Shown here: positions 3,936-10,922 of the stretch, piece after piece
Position numbering within the stretch: position 1 is the stretch's first letter
Layout: the number at the start of each line of letters is the position of its first letter
NCBI RefSeq assembly: GCF_029892065.1
Contig: NZ_CP120373.1
Span: 2,797,001-2,861,000 of the forward strand
Length of the DNA stretch: 64,000 bases
Direction: 5' to 3'
Source of the DNA: Sinorhizobium garamanticum
Lineage (GTDB): Bacteria > Pseudomonadota > Alphaproteobacteria > Rhizobiales > Rhizobiaceae
Notes under the pieces: generated by a model
The model's input: the letters and a program-made list of their open reading frames with translations, nothing else
Databases searched by the model: none
Told to the model about the DNA's origin: nothing
Position numbers and translations under genes: made by a program

Positions 3936-6900
3936 ATGCTTCGCGAGAGCCGGAACAACACACCACGACGATTGACCAAGCGCGCAGGGCGCGGCTCATC
4001 CGGGCATGACAGCGAGCGGCGCATCGTAACCGCGCTCTGCTACGATCTCGTCGGCTCGACCGACCTCTTCCAACGTATGGACATCGAAGACTACCAGGAA
4101 CTGATGACCGCCTTTGCGGCTGCGGCGAGGCAATCGATCGCCTCTCATTCCGGTATCATCCAGCACGAGGCGGGCGACGGCGGCGTGGCGCTGTTTCCGA
4201 TCGAACTCGATGCAAAAGATGCGGCATCGCTCGCCATCCGCGCCGGGCTGGGCATCATCGACGGCTGCAGGCGTGTCGGCCATGAGGCCGGACGTGACGA
4301 TTTGCACGTTCGGGTCGGCGTCGCGACGTCGGTCGCGCTCGTCACCGAGGCGAAGATGGAGAACTGGACGCAGGAAGCCGTCACGGGCGCGGCGCTCGCG
4401 ATGGCGGCCCGCCTGGAGGCCATCGCCGAGCCGGACAGCGTTCTGGTTTCAGAGGACACGCGCAATCTGGCGGGCCGATCGCACGCCTTCGTGTTCCAGG
4501 GCAGCAAGTTGCTCAAGGGGTTTTCCGAGCCGGAAAAGGTGTGGCGCGCGCTCGGGCACAAGATCGAGGTCAATCGATTTTACGCCTATGGAAGGCTCGG
4601 CGGTCCGTTCATCGGACGCGAAAGCGAGCTGGCTGCGATCGCCAGTGTCTGGGAGGGTGTGGTTGCCGGTAAAGGCGAAGTGGTGCTGATCGAGGGGGAG
4701 GCTGGCATCGGCAAGTCCCGCCTGTTGCGGGAGGTTCGCCGCAAGACGCGCGACCGGCGGTCCAAGCTGTTTTTCTTCCAGTGCCTTCCAGGCGGGCTCC
4801 GCTCGACGCTGCATCCGTTGCGCAACAGTTTCCCCGGCGACATCTCGGAAGCCGGCGGGCAGCTGACGGCGGCAGCGGTGGCAAACCTCTTCGAACGGAA
4901 CGGGATTTACGATGCGGAAGCCACGGACGTCTTCGCCTATCTGCTCGGAGCGAAGGGGGCAAACGAGTTTTTATCGGGCAGCGATCCGAAGGCGGTCCGC
5001 GAAAAGGCGCATCAGGCCCTGCTCCGCGCACTGAAAGCGGCCTGCCGAAACGGCCCGGTCGTCGTCGTGGTCGAGGATGTGCACTGGATCGACCCCACCT
5101 CGCAGGACCTGCTGGCGGAAGCCGCACAGGTTCTGCACGAGCTTCCGATCCTCCTTGTTGTCACCTCGCGCCCGCGATCGCAGGCGACGGGACACCAACC
5201 GGCGGGGAGCCCGGCGCACTGGCTCGATGCGGCAAATCCGAAGCGTATTACTCTCCACGCGCTCGATCGCGACGACACGCGGCTGGCGATCAGGGCGAGA
5301 TGGCCCGAGCACAGGCTCGCCATGCTTCCCGACCTTTTCGATGTGACGGAAAGAATATCGGGCGGCGTTCCCCTGTTCATCGAAGAGATCTGCCAATGGG
5401 CGTCGCAGAATGTGGGCGCCGACACGATGAACCTCTCGGAAACCGTCAAGCCCAGTCACGTCTCGGCCTTCGAGAGCATCCTTGACGCGCGTCTCCAGCA
5501 TCTGGGGCCCGCCCGGGATGTGGCGCGAGCGGGAGCGATTGCGGGCTCTCAGTTCACGCTGCCATTGCTGCACGCGCTCTTGCCGGATTTCAGTAAGAGG
5601 GCGCTGGCAAGTGCGGCCGATACCCTCTGCGAGACCGGATTCTTGATACGCATCAGGGCGCCGGGGCGCATCGCCTACGGCTTTCGCCACGTGCTGATCC
5701 AGGAGACGATCTACAACGCACTGTTGCGCAAGCAGCGGCAGACATTGCATCGCCGCCTTTTCGGTGCCGTCAGTCAGGACCACCAGGTGGCAGCCTGGAT
5801 CGACACCGGCGAGCTCGCCGAGCATGCGGAACGGGCAGGGCTTCTCGAAAACGCGATCGAGCTGTTCATCGCGGCGGGAAAGGAGAGCTCGAGCCGCTCG
5901 GCGATGGTCGAGGCGCGCCAATATCTCGAACACGCCTTGGCGCTCTCCGAGCGGCTGGGCGACGGGCACAAGGTCGAGCCGCTGCAGCTTTCGGCGCTGA
6001 CCGCACTTGGGCCGATCCTGACCGGGCTGGTGGGGCTGAACTCGCCGCCTGCGCGCAAGCTTTATGAGGATGGCGTGGAGATTGCTCGCCGGCAGCCGAT
6101 GGAGGACCAATCCAAGTGGTTTCCGATCTATTGGGGCTGGTGGTTCACCGGAGCGGATTTTCGTGTCATGCACGACCGCGCCTTGCAGGTGCAGACGATG
6201 CTGGCAGAGACCGAAGATCCGGAAATCCGGCTCCAGATCAACCATTGCATCTGGGCCATCGACTTCAATCTTGGCCATCATCACGAGACCCAGGAAGCGA
6301 TCGAAGCGGGTTTGACGCTCTACGATGAGCAGTCGGCGAAGACGGGCCGGACGCTCTATGGGGGGCATGACGCGAAAGTTTGCGGCCTCGGGCAACTGGC
6401 GCTCTCATTGTGGCTGACCGGACAGCAGAAGGCGTCGGATGCGGCGCTATCGGAAATGATCGCCTTTGTCGACAGGATTGAGCATGCGCCAAGCAAGGCG
6501 CATTCGCTTGATACGGAAGCGGTGTCAGCTTTCTATCGGGACGATTTCGAGCGCCTCATCGATGTTTCACGACGAATGGCAGAATTTGCCAGGAAGCACG
6601 AGATGCAATCCCTGACGGGTATGTCGCTACTTTTCGAAGGTTGGGCTCGCGCGAACCTCGAAAATCTGGCGAGCGGTCATAGGACATTTCAAGACGGGCT
6701 CTCGCTTCTAAAGCAGCTCGGTGCCGTTATAGACCTTCCGATTTATCTCTATATGCACGCCACGATGCTTGGCCTGGCCCAGAAATACCAGGCGGCGATC
6801 GACGTCGCCAACGAGGCGATCGAGAAGGCCAACGAAACGCACCACGCCTATTGGCTGGCCGAGCTCTATCGATGCCGTGCCGTCCTTCGCGCGCGAGGCA

Positions 6901-7031
6901 ATGCCGCGAAGGATATCGTCGCAGCCGACTTGCGGTCGGCCCTCGAAATCGCGGAACGCCAGGGCGCAAAGGCCCTTGTCGAGCGGGCGCGACGCTCAAT
7001 GCGGGAGCTTGGCATTGACATTGAACGCTGA
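3936..7031 (+). CDS. Cyclase-homology / AAA ATPase / TPR regulatory protein
   Basis: 1031 aa with three parts. Residues 28-205 form a class III nucleotidyl cyclase-homology domain with the two metal aspartates D37 (YDLVGSTD) and D81 (EAGDGG). The usual V-N-x-A-A-R-L signature reads LAMAARL, so the transition-state Asn is Ala (position 155) while the Arg (159) is kept. Residues 225-480 are an AAA_16/STAND ATPase with Walker A EGEAGIGKS (around 255) and Walker B VVVVEDVHW. Residues 620-1020 are TPR-like helices. No DNA-binding domain is seen. It is the first gene of the YcaO-TfuA operon and overlaps the next gene, so it may sense or switch on that pathway (inference). Cyclase activity is doubtful. 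Confidence 0.85.
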   Translation: MLRESRNNTPRRLTKRAGRGSSGHDSERRIVTALCYDLVGSTDLFQRMDIEDYQELMTAFAAAARQSIASHSGIIQHEAGDGGVALFPIELDAKDAASLAIRAGLGIIDGCRRVGHEAGRDDLHVRVGVATSVALVTEAKMENWTQEAVTGAALAMAARLEAIAEPDSVLVSEDTRNLAGRSHAFVFQGSKLLKGFSEPEKVWRALGHKIEVNRFYAYGRLGGPFIGRESELAAIASVWEGVVAGKGEVVLIEGEAGIGKSRLLREVRRKTRDRRSKLFFFQCLPGGLRSTLHPLRNSFPGDISEAGGQLTAAAVANLFERNGIYDAEATDVFAYLLGAKGANEFLSGSDPKAVREKAHQALLRALKAACRNGPVVVVVEDVHWIDPTSQDLLAEAAQVLHELPILLVVTSRPRSQATGHQPAGSPAHWLDAANPKRITLHALDRDDTRLAIRARWPEHRLAMLPDLFDVTERISGGVPLFIEEICQWASQNVGADTMNLSETVKPSHVSAFESILDARLQHLGPARDVARAGAIAGSQFTLPLLHALLPDFSKRALASAADTLCETGFLIRIRAPGRIAYGFRHVLIQETIYNALLRKQRQTLHRRLFGAVSQDHQVAAWIDTGELAEHAERAGLLENAIELFIAAGKESSSRSAMVEARQYLEHALALSERLGDGHKVEPLQLSALTALGPILTGLVGLNSPPARKLYEDGVEIARRQPMEDQSKWFPIYWGWWFTGADFRVMHDRALQVQTMLAETEDPEIRLQINHCIWAIDFNLGHHHETQEAIEAGLTLYDEQSAKTGRTLYGGHDAKVCGLGQLALSLWLTGQQKASDAALSEMIAFVDRIEHAPSKAHSLDTEAVSAFYRDDFERLIDVSRRMAEFARKHEMQSLTGMSLLFEGWARANLENLASGHRTFQDGLSLLKQLGAVIDLPIYLYMHATMLGLAQKYQAAIDVANEAIEKANETHHAYWLAELYRCRAVLRARGNAAKDIVAADLRSALEIAERQGAKALVERARRSMRELGIDIER

Positions 7032-8253
7032 ACCCGAAGAGCGGTGGCCAAGTGGCCGACGGCATTCTGGTCCGGCGCTTCACGAGTTTCGGAACGCGAT
7101 CCTTTCCCGCCTGAGAGCCCCCCTGTCGGCGCGTGCCGGACCGGAGCAGTTGGAACAGTGCTTTCGGACGGTTCTGCCGATTTGTCGACAAGCACGGATA
7201 ACGCGGGTCGCGGATCTGACCGGGCTTGACCGGATCGGCTTTCCGGTCGTTCAGGCGATCCGGCCTGCAGCGCTCTCGGAAGTGACGTCTCTCGGGCGCG
7301 GCCTCTCTATGACAGAGGCGGCAGTGGGGGCGATCATGGAATCGCTTGAGCGGTTCTTCGCCGAGTCCATTCCAGCAGAGCGCGTTTTCCGCGCCACTGC
7401 CGACGACCTCGGACTGGCGGAAGGTCTGTTTGAAAATCTTCTGGTACCAGGGGCCGGAACGAACTGGCGGAAGAGGGAAATCCATTGGATCACCGGGATC
7501 GACATCACCACCGGAGCCGCCCGGCCGGTTCCCCTTGAGCTTGTCCATGCTCGCTATACCGAGCCGCCGCCCGCCGGTGACGGCCTGTTCACACGCACGA
7601 CCACCGGTCTTGCCTGTCATACTTTGGCCTACGGCGCATTCCTGCACGGGCTGTTCGAATGCATCGAGCGTGACGCGATCGCGCGTGCCTTCGCCACGCA
7701 TGGCTTCTTCGACCGGATGCGGATCGCGCCCTCGGGCCTGGGGGACCGGGTCGAGCACATCCGATCCGCTGCTGGCGCGTGCGGCGTGTCGTTCGGTCTG
7801 TGGCTGGCGCCCTCGTCAACCGGTGTTCCGGTCGTCTGGTGCCAGTCGATCGAAACGGGGCCGGGCGAACCGATCCTGGCGCTGCCGACCGAGGGCTATG
7901 CCGCCGGTCCAAGCGTTGCGGCAGCCGCGGCGAGCGCGATGCTCGAGGCGCTCTCGGCCCGCGCCGGCGCGATTTCGGGCGCGCGCGATGACCAGACCCG
8001 AACGCACTATCGAAGAAGCATGGACGCAATCGTTTCCCAAGCGCGTCAGCTCATTATCGAAGGAGCGTCCTCGATGCGAAATGTTTCGGGCGAGGCGCCC
8101 ATGGTTACCGATCTTGCCACGCTCATCGAGAGGGTGCTGGCGGCGGGGCTCGGCCCTATACTGGCGGTGCCGGTGGGCGCGGACGACGAAATGGGCGTGC
8201 AATGCGTGAGGGTCATCCTGCCGGGAGCCACGCCCTTTTCCATTCTGCGATGA
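7015..8253 (+). CDS. YcaO-domain protein (peptide-backbone cyclodehydratase/thioamide synthase family)
   Basis: About 412 aa from a TTG start at 7015, chosen because GGGAG (7003-7007) is seven bases upstream and no ATG precedes the domain. TTG at 7021 is possible. The start lies inside the 3' end of the preceding gene. The Glu-rich YcaO ATP-binding motifs are visible: SMTEAAVGAIMESLER and FLHGLFECIERDAIARAF. YcaO enzymes use ATP to activate backbone amides, making azolines or, with TfuA, thioamides. The coupled downstream TfuA gene points to the thioamidation branch. No E1-like (ocin-ThiF) partner is present. The substrate is not known. Confidence 0.9.
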   Translation: MTLNAEPEERWPSGRRHSGPALHEFRNAILSRLRAPLSARAGPEQLEQCFRTVLPICRQARITRVADLTGLDRIGFPVVQAIRPAALSEVTSLGRGLSMTEAAVGAIMESLERFFAESIPAERVFRATADDLGLAEGLFENLLVPGAGTNWRKREIHWITGIDITTGAARPVPLELVHARYTEPPPAGDGLFTRTTTGLACHTLAYGAFLHGLFECIERDAIARAFATHGFFDRMRIAPSGLGDRVEHIRSAAGACGVSFGLWLAPSSTGVPVVWCQSIETGPGEPILALPTEGYAAGPSVAAAAASAMLEALSARAGAISGARDDQTRTHYRRSMDAIVSQARQLIIEGASSMRNVSGEAPMVTDLATLIERVLAAGLGPILAVPVGADDEMGVQCVRVILPGATPFSILR

Positions 8254-9029
8254 GGGCGGCGATGACCGATACAAGCAATCAAGGCCCGATCCTGGTGTTT
8301 CTTGGCCCGACGCTGAGGCTCGCGGAAGCGGAGGCGGTGCTCGACGCCATCTATCTGCAGCCGGCCGCACAAGGCGACATCCTGCTTGCCGCCCATGCAT
8401 TTCATCCGCGCGCGATGGTTCTGATCGACGGACAATTCGAGGACCGGCCTGCGGTCCGGCACAAGGAAATTCTATGGGCAATGGCGCAAGGCATTGTAAT
8501 GATCGGTGCCGCCAGCATGGGAGCGCTCCGGGCAGCGGAGCTCGATGCGTTCGGCATGATCGGCGTCGGCCTGATCTATCGATGGTATCGGCGCTGGCGG
8601 TTGGCGCCCGACGATGCGGTTGCCGTTCATTCAGGCCCTGCCGAGCTCGGCTTTCCACCCCTGACGGACTCGCTTGTCGATCTCCAGCGAACGTTATCGA
8701 GCCTGATGCGCCGCGATCTAATCGGGGCCGCCGAGCGTGATCTGCTCACAACGATCGCGCGAAAGACGAACTTCCGGGAACGCTCTCTTGACGCGGTGCT
8801 GCGAGCCGCCGGATGGCGGGGCGACCAGGCGAAGAAACTGCGAAGCGAAATCGTGGGGCAGAAGAAACGCGACGCACTCCTTGCGCTGCATCGCGCGCCG
8901 GCCCTTGCGCTACAATGCCCGGAGGCGCGTGGCCCCGCCGACTGGGTTGCGACGAACACCTTCATCCGCGATCTGGAGGCTGGTGGCATTGACTCAAATT
9001 TAGCGAACACTTATAAATTGAATCTGTAA
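8250..9029 (+). CDS. TfuA-like core domain protein
   Basis: About 259 aa. The ATG at 8250 overlaps the YcaO stop as ATGA; an alternative ATG is at 8262. The protein has the TfuA core pattern: LVFLGPTL, PAAQGDILLAA, LIDGQF, HKEILWAM, GAASMGALRAAEL, and then a less conserved helical C-terminal half. TfuA is named after the trifolitoxin locus of Rhizobium. In characterised systems TfuA partners YcaO in thioamide formation, where it is thought to help deliver sulfur. Coupling to YcaO here strongly implies a working pair. The C-terminal tail after about residue 150 has an unclear role. Confidence 0.9.
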   Translation: MRAAMTDTSNQGPILVFLGPTLRLAEAEAVLDAIYLQPAAQGDILLAAHAFHPRAMVLIDGQFEDRPAVRHKEILWAMAQGIVMIGAASMGALRAAELDAFGMIGVGLIYRWYRRWRLAPDDAVAVHSGPAELGFPPLTDSLVDLQRTLSSLMRRDLIGAAERDLLTTIARKTNFRERSLDAVLRAAGWRGDQAKKLRSEIVGQKKRDALLALHRAPALALQCPEARGPADWVATNTFIRDLEAGGIDSNLANTYKLNL

Positions 9030-9063
9030 TTGCCGGATTTTCCATCGAGGGGGCAATTGTGCA

Positions 9064-10269
9064 ATGCGTCTGCTTGGCGACGATGCCCTCGAATCGGCAA
9101 GCGCGCGTCTTGGCACGCGCTTCTGGATATATCCCCAGCCGCCGTTCATTCCCGGCTACGAGCAGCCGGACCGCGTGTGGCTTTCGATACCGCGCGACGA
9201 AATCGGCGAGGGGCCGAGCGACCCGACCATGTATGTGGTCGATCCGATCCTTGACAAGCAGCCGTACAGCTTCAATCAACTCCCGCCGTTTGGCGGACCA
9301 AAGCGTGCTCCACCAACGCCCGGTCCGGATCGTCATTTCGACAATCTGCTGCCTGACTCGAGGGCATTTCTTGGAGTGCACGCCTATGCCTGCGTGCATT
9401 TCGTTCTCGACATTTGGCAGAGCTATCTAGGCCGCCCCATCCGCTGGTTCTTCAGCCAAACCTTTCCGAGGCTCGAGATCGTCGCCTTCGTAAACTGGGA
9501 CAACGCACAGGCGGGCTACGGCTTCCTGGAACTCGGGTGTTCCGATATCGATGGCATAAGGCGGCCTTACGCGTTGAATTTCGACGCGATCGCCCATGAG
9601 GTCGGCCACCTTATCCTACTTTCCGAGACAGGGATCCCGACGGCCCCATCACAAGGGGACGACTTCTTTCCATTCTCGGAAGCTTTTTCGGACGTGGTGT
9701 CGCTGATCTCATTCCTGCACTTCGACTCCGCCATCGACCGGTTGCTGCGGCGAACCCGAGGCAATCTGCTGCTTTACAATGAACTCAACCGCTTTGCGGA
9801 AACGAGCCCGGAGACCCAGATCCGTCTCGCCACCAATTTTCGCCGCGTATCCGACACGACGCGTAACGTGCATGACCGAGCACTTCCGTTCGTTGGCGCC
9901 ATCTTCGACACCATCGTCGAACTTTATCATCGGGAACTGGTTGCGCGCGACTGCGCCGACATACGGCTTGTGGATATCGATGTTCGAGATTTGGAGCAGG
10001 ACGATTTCGACCGATTCCGCCAGATGACAGCGGATGCCTTCCAGGTCAAACCGATGATCTTCAGGTTGGCGCTGACCGCTGCACGCGATGCAGTTGGCCA
10101 AGCGGTCGCGGTCGCGCTGCGGACACTCGATCCGAACACGCTGCGGCTCGATCAGGCGGCATACGCCATGATGGCCGCTGCAGGCGGGGCAACTGCCGAA
10201 CTGCTGGAATCCAATTTCGCATGGCGTGAGATTATTACTTCAACAGGAATGGATAGGAGATGGAGATGA
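9064..10269 (+). CDS. Putative gluzincin zinc metalloprotease of the YcaO-TfuA operon
   Basis: 401 aa, no signal peptide, with GAGGGGG about nine bases before the ATG. It contains H-E-V-G-H at residues 178-182 (FDAIAHEVGHLILL). Twenty-four residues further, FSEAFSDVVSL supplies a candidate third ligand E206 and resembles the E-x-x-S-D helix of thermolysin-like M4 enzymes. The rest does not match a family I recognise. A second conserved-looking segment is the DRALPFVGAIFDTIVELYH helix pair (about 275-293). It lies 34 bp after tfuA and overlaps the next gene. A leader-cleaving or substrate-processing protease for the modified product is a reasonable inference. Confidence 0.7.
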   Translation: MRLLGDDALESASARLGTRFWIYPQPPFIPGYEQPDRVWLSIPRDEIGEGPSDPTMYVVDPILDKQPYSFNQLPPFGGPKRAPPTPGPDRHFDNLLPDSRAFLGVHAYACVHFVLDIWQSYLGRPIRWFFSQTFPRLEIVAFVNWDNAQAGYGFLELGCSDIDGIRRPYALNFDAIAHEVGHLILLSETGIPTAPSQGDDFFPFSEAFSDVVSLISFLHFDSAIDRLLRRTRGNLLLYNELNRFAETSPETQIRLATNFRRVSDTTRNVHDRALPFVGAIFDTIVELYHRELVARDCADIRLVDIDVRDLEQDDFDRFRQMTADAFQVKPMIFRLALTAARDAVGQAVAVALRTLDPNTLRLDQAAYAMMAAAGGATAELLESNFAWREIITSTGMDRRWR

Positions 10270-10922
10270 GCGATTGTTGTTTTCATCCAGTTGTTGGAAA
10301 AGACATGTCAAAATTAAGGGATAAAATCGACTATAAATCCTACAAGCCTGGCGATCTTAGATTATATGGCAGGCCGGCGGAATCGTATAAGAAAGACGTT
10401 GCAGACGAAAAGATAAAAAAGTTATTGGATGAATTGTATGGAAATGTTGAAACATTAGGTGGAAGCAAAGATATCATCGATCAAATTAATAAGCTTGTCG
10501 AACAAATTTTGAATCACCTTAAAAAAAGCGCTGGCGTCGTCGATGATGGAATAACTGTCGCTGTATTTGATGGAGATTATTTTCATTTTCTCCCAATCAG
10601 CCTCAACGTGGAGGATGGCGTTATAGAGAGTATCGGCGTGATATATGGTTATGCCTATGAGGGGCATTGCTACAAGCTGCCGAAGCCGCAGATCATGTGC
10701 CTGTCGGACGCGCCGTCACTCGTTAAAGACGGCGATTGCGGATATGATCCGACATTCGGCTATGCCGTCTGGTCGATCGACAAACTTGAGCGCGCCATCG
10801 TCCTTGACGTTCGCGCAGATGAACTGAAGACGCTGGTCTTGGACGAGAACATGCCGGGGAGCCGCTCGCCGCTGGCCTACGCGCAATCCATGAACTTGGC
10901 GCCGCAGCGTCATCGCGACTGA
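10266..10922 (+). CDS. Unknown protein, last gene of the YcaO-TfuA operon; candidate substrate
   Basis: 218 aa from ATG 10266 (AGGAG six bases upstream, ATGA overlap with the protease stop); ATG 10260 is also in frame. No family is recognised. The first half is Lys/Asp/Ile-rich and AT-rich: 62 of 180 bases are G or C at 10381-10560. The second half is normal for this genome (34 of 60 at 10801-10860). Cysteines are few and clustered: S-D-C-C-F near the start, then GHCYKLPKPQIMCL and DGDCGYDPTFGY around residues 132-165. It is longer than usual RiPP precursors. Position and composition make it a candidate substrate or immunity protein (inference). Confidence 0.55.
   Translation: MSDCCFHPVVGKDMSKLRDKIDYKSYKPGDLRLYGRPAESYKKDVADEKIKKLLDELYGNVETLGGSKDIIDQINKLVEQILNHLKKSAGVVDDGITVAVFDGDYFHFLPISLNVEDGVIESIGVIYGYAYEGHCYKLPKPQIMCLSDAPSLVKDGDCGYDPTFGYAVWSIDKLERAIVLDVRADELKTLVLDENMPGSRSPLAYAQSMNLAPQRHRD

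What the first reader, a model, noticed from the sequence alone, without database searches (positions are those of the whole stretch)
7015..10922. YcaO-TfuA-metalloprotease operon: a candidate new RiPP or protein-thioamidation system
Seen: four genes after a cyclase/AAA regulator, each overlapping or within 35 bp of the next (TTG start inside the previous gene, ATGA, 34 bp, ATGA). They encode YcaO with both Glu motifs, TfuA with its full core, a HEXXH protease and an unknown 218-aa protein. Known: YcaO with TfuA makes thioamides (thioviridamide-type peptides, methyl-coenzyme M reductase glycine) and TfuA is named from trifolitoxin of Rhizobium. Inference: this operon modifies a peptide or protein and processes it with its own protease. 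No classic short precursor ORF, exporter or E1-like partner was seen, which separates it from the known trifolitoxin layout.
Basis: partly seen in the sequence, partly recalled or inferred. Interest (0 to 1): 0.88.

Follow-up and report, generated by a model that had tools for sequence, protein, structure and literature searches.

The report
Protease-coupled thioamide peptide operon
A five-gene set found in many root-nodule bacteria appears to make a small sulfur-modified peptide from the tail of a larger carrier protein and to cut it free with its own protease; the sulfur chemistry is of a known kind, but the carrier protein and the protease partnership look new.

The parts
3936..7031 (+). 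Regulator (CYC): cyclase-like domain, AAA_16 STAND-type ATPase, TPR-like C-terminus, 1031 aa
   Evidence: Pfam Guanylate_cyc 25.5 bits, AAA_16 79.7 bits; TPR_12 only 11.8 bits, under its cut-off; first gene in 80 of 80 named loci; metal Asp kept in 89 and 92 of 93 rows, but the residue aligned to the transition-state Asn is Ala in 75 of 93 (catalytic roles recalled)
7015..8253 (+). YcaO enzyme, 412 aa (TTG start inside the regulator gene)
   Evidence: PF02624 179.6 bits; best NCBIfam TIGR03266 McrA-glycine thioamidation YcaO, 138 bits, below its cut-off 365; TIGR00702 YcaO-type kinase domain 107 bits, over its cut-off 75.65; PDB match MJ1094 E 7.5e-10; E109, E112, E215, E218, E311, R316, R324, D326 invariant in 107 sequences (ATP-site role recalled)
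8250..9029 (+). TfuA, 259 aa
   Evidence: PF07812 141.3 bits; NF033432 168 bits, below its cut-off 235; both run on the frame from 8202
9064..10269 (+). HEX: thermolysin/fungalysin-like metalloprotease, 401 aa
9595..9609 (+). HEVGH zinc motif, residues 178-182
   Evidence: H178, E179, H182 invariant in 21 of 21
9679..9693 (+). EAFSD, probable third zinc ligand E206 and D210 (gluzincin pattern, recalled)
   Evidence: E206 and D210 invariant in 21 of 21
10266..10922 (+). S218: proposed precursor protein, 218 aa
   Evidence: last gene in 80 of 80 named loci; homologues end in tandem repeats in 11 distant loci
10359..10373 (+). RLYGR motif of S218, residues 32-36, candidate recognition motif
   Evidence: L33 and Y34 in 90% or more, G35 in all 49 rows of A3
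10377..10619 (+). Hypervariable linker of S218, residues 38-118
   Evidence: mean pairwise identity 0.12 against 0.56 for residues 119-191; G+C 0.38 for residues 1-118 against 0.58 for the rest
10620..10838 (+). Carrier domain of S218, residues 119-191 (holds SIGVIYGYAYEGHCYKLPKP)
   Evidence: conserved to the multi-core homologues, hhalign 98.3%, E 1.5e-14; pLDDT about 90
10839..10919 (+). Proposed core region of S218, residues 192-218 (LDENMPGSRSPLAYAQSMNLAPQRHRD)
   Evidence: L192, N195, P197, G198, R200, P202, Y205 in 81 of 81 rows; pLDDT about 56 over residues 201-218; sits where homologues carry the repeats

Best explanation
The operon makes a ribosomal peptide. S218 is a precursor with a folded carrier (leader) domain and a short flexible C-terminal core; in other alphaproteobacteria the same carrier bears several near-identical cores in tandem. 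YcaO, with TfuA supplying sulfide, activates a backbone amide in the core with ATP and turns it into a thioamide. HEX, an M36/M4-type zinc protease that probably stays inside the cell (no signal-peptide test was run), then cuts the core (or each core) from the carrier. The regulator senses an unknown signal and switches the operon on. Shown here: gene set and order, conserved residues, predicted HEX fold, carrier homology, tandem cores in relatives. Inferred: precursor role, thioamidation, cleavage by HEX, regulation. The product's job is unknown; with no conserved exporter found and a nearly fixed core in the window's clade I favour a conserved signal or cofactor-like peptide over a diversifying antibiotic.
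For: Five genes in order in 80 of 80 named loci. Of 25 further stretches with a strong HEX, 22 have enough downstream sequence; five of these are the same contigs (by length) as named loci, leaving 17 new ones. All 22 have an S218-like last gene: 21 by profile, L180 by position and by eye. C-terminal tandem repeats in 11 of the 17 new loci, nine units of which VSGAR and VSGAK are near-identical; control: of 579 ORFs of 100 aa or more in those 11 loci only these 11 and three antisense ORFs over the same DNA reach the score. Carrier homology between single-core and multi-core families. Tail modelled with low confidence, carrier with high. HEX fold M36/M4 with invariant HExxH + E/D. YcaO nearest to the McrA-thioamidating family and to MJ1094. 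The GMNV, GQN[VI] and GAGQMV cores hold no Cys, Ser or Thr, so an azoline is not possible there, whereas a thioamide is. Precedent: VarA multi-core precursor thioamidated by VarY and VarT (PMC6511847, passages).
Against: No mass-spectrometry or biochemical evidence. Several profile matches of distant S218-like proteins are weak (14-24 bits). Six of the 17 new loci have no repeats: L129 and L179 have an Arg-rich tail, L171, L172, L173 and L178 a single tail. The window's core is highly conserved, which is unusual for a natural product. No ThiS-like carrier, E1-like gene or exporter among the five genes, and no conserved flanking partner common to the loci compared. Three Rhizobium plasmids have cyclase-HEX-S218 with no TfuA anywhere on the plasmid, so YcaO/TfuA are not always needed, or act from another replicon. 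No YcaO was found by profile in L131. A Nostoc plasmid has HEX with no S218 seen and no TfuA on the record. The named and distant loci were chosen through HEX, so HEX is present in them by selection.
Confidence: 0.64

Rival explanations
1. S218 is a full-length protein whose backbone is thioamidated and which then works as a protein, as McrA and uL16 do. HEX cleaves it for activation or turnover only.
For: Very conserved single-core clade, a folded domain, and a YcaO nearest to the McrA family. McrA and uL16 are known protein substrates (PMC5589413 and PMC13063428, passages).
Against: Tandem, sequence-variable tails in homologues are hard to explain for a protein enzyme. A protease gene sits beside S218 also when S218 is the query: 29 of 30 relatives and 3 of 3 class genomes.
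Confidence: 0.15
2. HEX is not a protease but an alpha-ketoglutarate-dependent HEXXH oxygenase of the kind recently found in RiPP clusters, hydroxylating or oxidatively cleaving the core.
For: Such enzymes have a zincin-like fold and were first taken for peptidases; PflC/PosC hydroxylate and oxidatively cut the C-terminus of their precursor (PMC12636437, abstract and passages).
Confidence: 0.12
3. HEX-S218 is the primary system: a protease-released peptide (signal) that does not need modification, with YcaO-TfuA added in one lineage.
For: Cyclase-HEX-S218 without TfuA on three Rhizobium plasmids, and no YcaO within the stretches fetched, with imperfect SRSGG repeats read by eye.
Against: That set is one clade nested among YcaO-bearing ones (100/100), so loss is as good a reading; YcaO was found in 21 of the 22 further loci with enough sequence and in 80 of 80 named loci.
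Confidence: 0.12
4. The operon is an anti-phage or self-killing device: the STAND ATPase/cyclase senses infection and frees HEX or the peptide.
For: STAND-type ATPase, a PADLOC match of the cyclase domain to Pycsar cyclase (38 bits), a protease with its own substrate.
Against: No PADLOC match for the other four proteins at E 0.01. Chelativorans has a BTAD activator domain in the regulator, which points to transcription control.
Confidence: 0.05

Closest known systems
Thiovarsolin system (VarA-VarY-VarT-VarO), Streptomyces varsoviensis
   Same: YcaO + TfuA, precursor with tandem short cores; the family varies from no repeat to five repeats (PMC6511847, passages)
   Different: [quoted passage not shown] here there is a carrier of about 190 aa without a Pfam match over cut-off, an M36/M4-like protease in the operon and no haem-oxygenase-like gene among the five
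McrA thioamidation by YcaO-TfuA in methanogens
   Same: best-scoring NCBIfam models and closest solved YcaO structure
   Different: substrate is a metabolic enzyme; both scores are below the equivalog cut-offs; no protease is mentioned ('protease' not in the main text of PMC5589413)
[quoted passage not shown]
   Same: long structured leader bound by a YcaO (PMC12455567, abstract and passages)
   Different: MprE leaders are 81 aa, with a trihelical bundle and an azoline-forming YcaO that has an RRE; S218 has no NCBIfam match and a mixed strand/helix model
M36 fungalysin and M4 thermolysin proteases
   Same: fold over about 260-305 residues, HExxH and downstream E/D
   Different: 11-18% identity; only 3 of 21 members touch the Pfam M4 model and 1 of 21 the M36 model, all weakly; sits in a RiPP-type operon. 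A review of RiPP proteases names M1, M16, M50, M61, M79, M103 metalloproteases in the passages seen, and the words thermolysin and HEXXH do not occur in its main text (PMC10885120)
TfuA-related clusters mined by antiSMASH (PMC8120280)
   Same: over 500 reported from Rhizobium; this operon is probably among them (inference: Rhizobium sp. SL42 has 'TfuA-related' regions 1.1 and 2.2, and its plasmid lists the ATPase, TfuA, HEX and S218 genes; YcaO is not in that incomplete table and was not checked)
   Different: the study sought precursors with RiPPER; words beginning with protease or cyclase do not occur in its main text, one prolyl endopeptidase (S9) does

Membership tests
TfuA-YcaO thioamidated RiPP | YcaO with intact ATP/Mg site next to TfuA | tested here: met
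   (residue roles recalled)
TfuA-YcaO thioamidated RiPP | precursor with conserved leader and C-terminal core | tested here: met
   Met for the family: variable tandem cores behind a homologous carrier. For the window's own single-core member it rests on homology
TfuA-YcaO thioamidated RiPP | backbone thioamide in the product | not testable with these tools
   needs mass spectrometry; GMNV, GQN[VI] and GAGQMV cores without C/S/T argue against azolines only
Thiovarsolin family | VarA-type precursor with APR/GPR cores | tested here: not met
   no APR or GPR unit among the tandem repeats found; VarA itself was not aligned
McrA-thioamidation YcaO and TfuA (TIGR03266, NF033432) | score over the equivalog cut-off | tested here: not met
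   138 of 365 bits and 168 of 235 bits
NHLP / proteusin leader | match to known leader models | tested here: not met
   no NCBIfam match to S218 at E 0.5; no Pfam match over cut-off; that both libraries hold NHLP models is recalled
M36/M4 gluzincin protease | HExxH plus downstream Glu ligand | tested here: met
   H178, E179, H182, E206, D210 invariant in 21 of 21
M36/M4 gluzincin protease | fold | tested here: met
   [not shown]
M36/M4 gluzincin protease | Pfam M4 or M36 model over cut-off | tested here: inconclusive
   window member no match; weak matches in 3 of 21 (M4, best E 0.0013) and 1 of 21 (M36, E 0.031)
M36/M4 gluzincin protease | peptidase activity | not testable with these tools
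   bench assay needed
alpha-ketoglutarate HEXXH RiPP oxygenase | sequence family IPR026337 | tested here: inconclusive
   no NCBIfam match at E 0.5; whether that library holds this family's model was not checked
TOMM kinase/cyclase fusion (TIGR03903) | score over cut-off | tested here: not met
   302 of 705.75 bits; only profile positions 276-1267 matched
Trifolitoxin cluster | short TfxA-type precursor and its partner genes | not tested
   no trifolitoxin sequence was compared; only the lack of a conserved flanking gene set was seen

The most novel reading that the evidence does not exclude
HEX-S218 is a general 'protein-carried peptide' platform of Alphaproteobacteria: a folded carrier displays one or many short cores that a thermolysin-type protease frees on a signal from a STAND/cyclase or BTAD regulator, and different lineages plug in different or no modifying enzymes (YcaO-TfuA here). 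In rhizobia it has settled on a single, nearly invariant thioamidated peptide that acts as an internal signal or cofactor.
Probability: 0.3. Interest if true: 0.85.

Novelty: new variant of a known kind. Interest (0 to 1): 0.68.

Why it matters
Genome mining has reported hundreds of TfuA-related clusters in rhizobia without a characterised product (PMC8120280 says that all TfuA-YcaO peptides then known came from Actinobacteria). This analysis names a probable precursor (a long ORF of the kind that searches for short peptides can miss), a dedicated protease and a testable core sequence, in harmless, genetically tractable symbionts such as Sinorhizobium fredii. It also offers a genetically encoded candidate thioamide system with its own release protease and natural multi-core arrays, useful for peptide engineering, and makes the question of why root-nodule bacteria keep a nearly fixed modified peptide directly testable.

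Tried and rejected

Rows dropped before counts: L137, L183 and L184 (contig ends just after HEX) were left out of the 22 further loci; L183 and L184 show the beginning of an S218-like gene by eye. The 20 unnamed genus loci also partly repeat named genomes, so the conservation count is given on the 80 named ones. L074 shows a repeat near its N-terminus and is not counted as multi-core. For the tree 49 HEX rows were chosen by hand.
Full report
OBSERVATION. The five frames are open and arranged as described. The genes are a regulator (3936-7031), YcaO (7015-8253), TfuA (8250-9029), a HEXXH protein called HEX here (9064-10269) and a 218-aa protein called S218 here (10266-10922). YcaO and TfuA match Pfam far over cut-off; HEX has no Pfam match at E 0.5 and S218 none over cut-off. 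The window lies in a 6.8-Mb genome that holds two more YcaO genes on another contig, each followed by a TfuA-like ORF (judged by reading the translations).

CONSERVATION. A HEX profile found 153 places in the species-level genome collection, of which the best 80 were kept. In all 80 the order regulator-YcaO-TfuA-HEX-S218 is present on one strand, with phmmer E of 1e-4 or better to the window's proteins; in a few the regulator or HEX is split into two ORFs. The genera include Sinorhizobium/Ensifer, Rhizobium, Phyllobacterium, Chelativorans, Pseudaminobacter, Mesorhizobium, Stappia, Labrenzia, Roseibium, Microvirga and Aestuariivirga. These loci were chosen through HEX, so the reverse was tested with S218. 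Among 60 relatives 30 have S218 and 30 have a strong HEX; 29 have both, adjacent. The exceptions are G010 (a 53-residue S218 match only) and G009 (70% complete, HEX fragment only). In a class-wide draw of 385 genomes the S218 profile found three, all with HEX next to it; the HEX profile found 13, eight of them strong, and the strong ones that could be fetched with their flanks proved to have a more distant S218. In the plasmid collection 124 of 72,556 records match HEX, 115 of them Rhizobium.

WHAT THE LAST GENE IS. S218 was aligned over more and more distant relatives. It has an N-terminal motif around RLYG, a hypervariable linker (mean pairwise identity 0.12 over residues 38-118), a conserved carrier domain (0.56 over 119-191) and a conserved tail, in which L192, N195, P197, G198, R200, P202 and Y205 are fixed in 81 of 81 rows. 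Further operons were then fetched from unnamed alphaproteobacteria. In 21 of the 22 the profile finds an S218-like last gene, some only weakly (14-24 bits); in the 22nd, L180, position and similarity to L127 by eye show it. In eleven of the 17 the protein ends in tandem repeats where the window's protein has its tail: SRAVMA (L127), SRAMMQ (L180), VSGAR (L128, L174, L175), VSGAK (L176), SDLVGR (L130), RGDM[AS]A (L182), GMNV (L131), GQN[VI] (L185) and GAGQMV (L181). Of the other six, L129 and L179 have an Arg-rich tail and L171, L172, L173 and L178 a single tail of the window's kind. As a control, of 579 ORFs of at least 100 aa in the eleven loci only the eleven, and three antisense ORFs over the same DNA, reach the repeat score. 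The carrier of 13 distant proteins, most of them repeat-bearing, is homologous to that of the window's family (hhalign probability 98.3%, E 1.5e-14, 101 columns). Conserved carrier plus variable, often repeated C-terminal core is the signature of a multi-core RiPP precursor. The AlphaFold model of S218 is confident in the carrier and poor in the last 18 residues (pLDDT about 56), consistent with a flexible tail. No known fold was recognised.

THE MODIFICATION. YcaO is nearest to the McrA-thioamidating family (138 bits, under the cut-off of 365) and to the solved MJ1094, with eight Glu, Arg and Asp residues of the probable ATP site (roles recalled) invariant in 107 sequences. TfuA partners are described as hydrolases that help pass sulfide from a thiocarboxylated carrier (PMC13063428, passages); no such carrier is among the five genes, so one from elsewhere would have to serve. 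Three core types (GMNV, GQN[VI], GAGQMV) have no Cys, Ser or Thr, so an azoline cannot form there. Thioamidation is the best guess and was not observed.

THE REGULATOR. In the window's clade it is a cyclase-like/STAND protein with a TPR-like end. Both metal-binding aspartates are kept in most rows (89 and 92 of 93), but the residue aligned to the transition-state Asn is Ala in 75 of 93 and Asn in 6 (roles recalled), so the cyclase may be inactive. In Chelativorans the protein carries a BTAD transcription-activator domain and no cyclase match. Among the 22 further loci the upstream regulator is missing in eight (L128, L129, L131, L174, L175, L176, L179, L185; in L181 the contig is too short to tell); in six of these (all but L131 and L175) a TPR regulator gene lies convergent and within about 550 bp downstream of the operon. 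NCBIfam relates one of these to 'putative peptide modification system cyclase' (L176, 46.6 bits, cut-off 400).

EVOLUTION. A HEX tree of 49 hand-chosen rows places all 30 single-core loci in one group (100/100); the multi-core loci spread over the rest, one (L182, poorly filled) beside the Nostoc row (the root is for drawing only). Three Rhizobium plasmids (OyaliB p4, pRspN324a, pRapFH23d) keep a cyclase-HEX-S218 set ending in imperfect SRSGG repeats, with no TfuA on the whole plasmid. They form one nested clade, so loss of YcaO-TfuA, action in trans, or an unmodified product are all open. A Nostoc plasmid has HEX beside ferritin-like and radical SAM genes; no S218 was seen by eye among the ORFs next to it and there is no TfuA on the record.

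KNOWN OR NEW. Thiovarsolins prove the principle of a YcaO-TfuA pair acting on a repeated core, with no cluster protease (PMC6511847, passages). NHLP leaders show that folded leaders can serve YcaO enzymes (PMC12455567, abstract and passages). A global mining study counted over 500 TfuA-related clusters in Rhizobium; words beginning with protease or cyclase do not occur in its main text, though it mentions a prolyl endopeptidase (PMC8120280, passages and section 12). A review of RiPP proteases names M1, M16, M50, M61, M79 and M103 metalloproteases in the passages seen and does not use the words thermolysin or HEXXH (PMC10885120). In ten paper searches, some with capped listings (see Tried and rejected), no description of this operon appeared. 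I therefore call it a new variant of the TfuA-YcaO RiPP kind: known chemistry, with a new precursor family and a dedicated protease of a type not seen in that review.

CONFIDENCE. S218 as precursor: about 0.75. HEX as its protease: about 0.7. Thioamide as the modification: about 0.65. Biological role: unknown.

Noticed in passing
L004:9410-15597 (own genome, contig C2 about 1.546 Mb): A second YcaO-TfuA pair with a short 69-aa ORF (L004:10343-10552) starting just before YcaO that looks like a classic short precursor, and a divergent 262-aa gene that may be the haem-oxygenase-like gene noted for several Sinorhizobium in PMC8120280 (no NCBIfam match).
   Followed up: partly
L005:7805-11903 (own genome, contig C2 about 1.282 Mb): A third YcaO-TfuA pair, preceded by a 622-aa TPR protein; no obvious precursor was identified.
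   Followed up: partly
L191, L193, L194 (Rhizobium plasmids): HEX-S218 cassette without TfuA on the plasmid, with SRSGG repeats; in L191 and L193 a further annotated gene of about 111 aa follows.
   Followed up: partly
L192:9001-15190 (Nostoc sp. UHCC 0302 plasmid): A HEX homologue (44.7% identical to that of L127) beside two ferritin-like genes and a radical SAM gene, far outside Alphaproteobacteria.
   Followed up: partly
window 10266-10619: The first 118 codons of S218 have G+C 0.38 against 0.63 for the window; the hypervariable linker may be imported or fast evolving.
   Followed up: no
G010:C113:25355-25513: A 53-residue S218 match without HEX in a genome of the same genus, possibly a remnant of a lost operon.
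   Followed up: no
L189:10664-11032: A small gene (122 aa, no known family over cut-off) directly after S218 in Rhizobium sp. N731; similar-looking ORFs follow S218 in L171 and L172.
   Followed up: no
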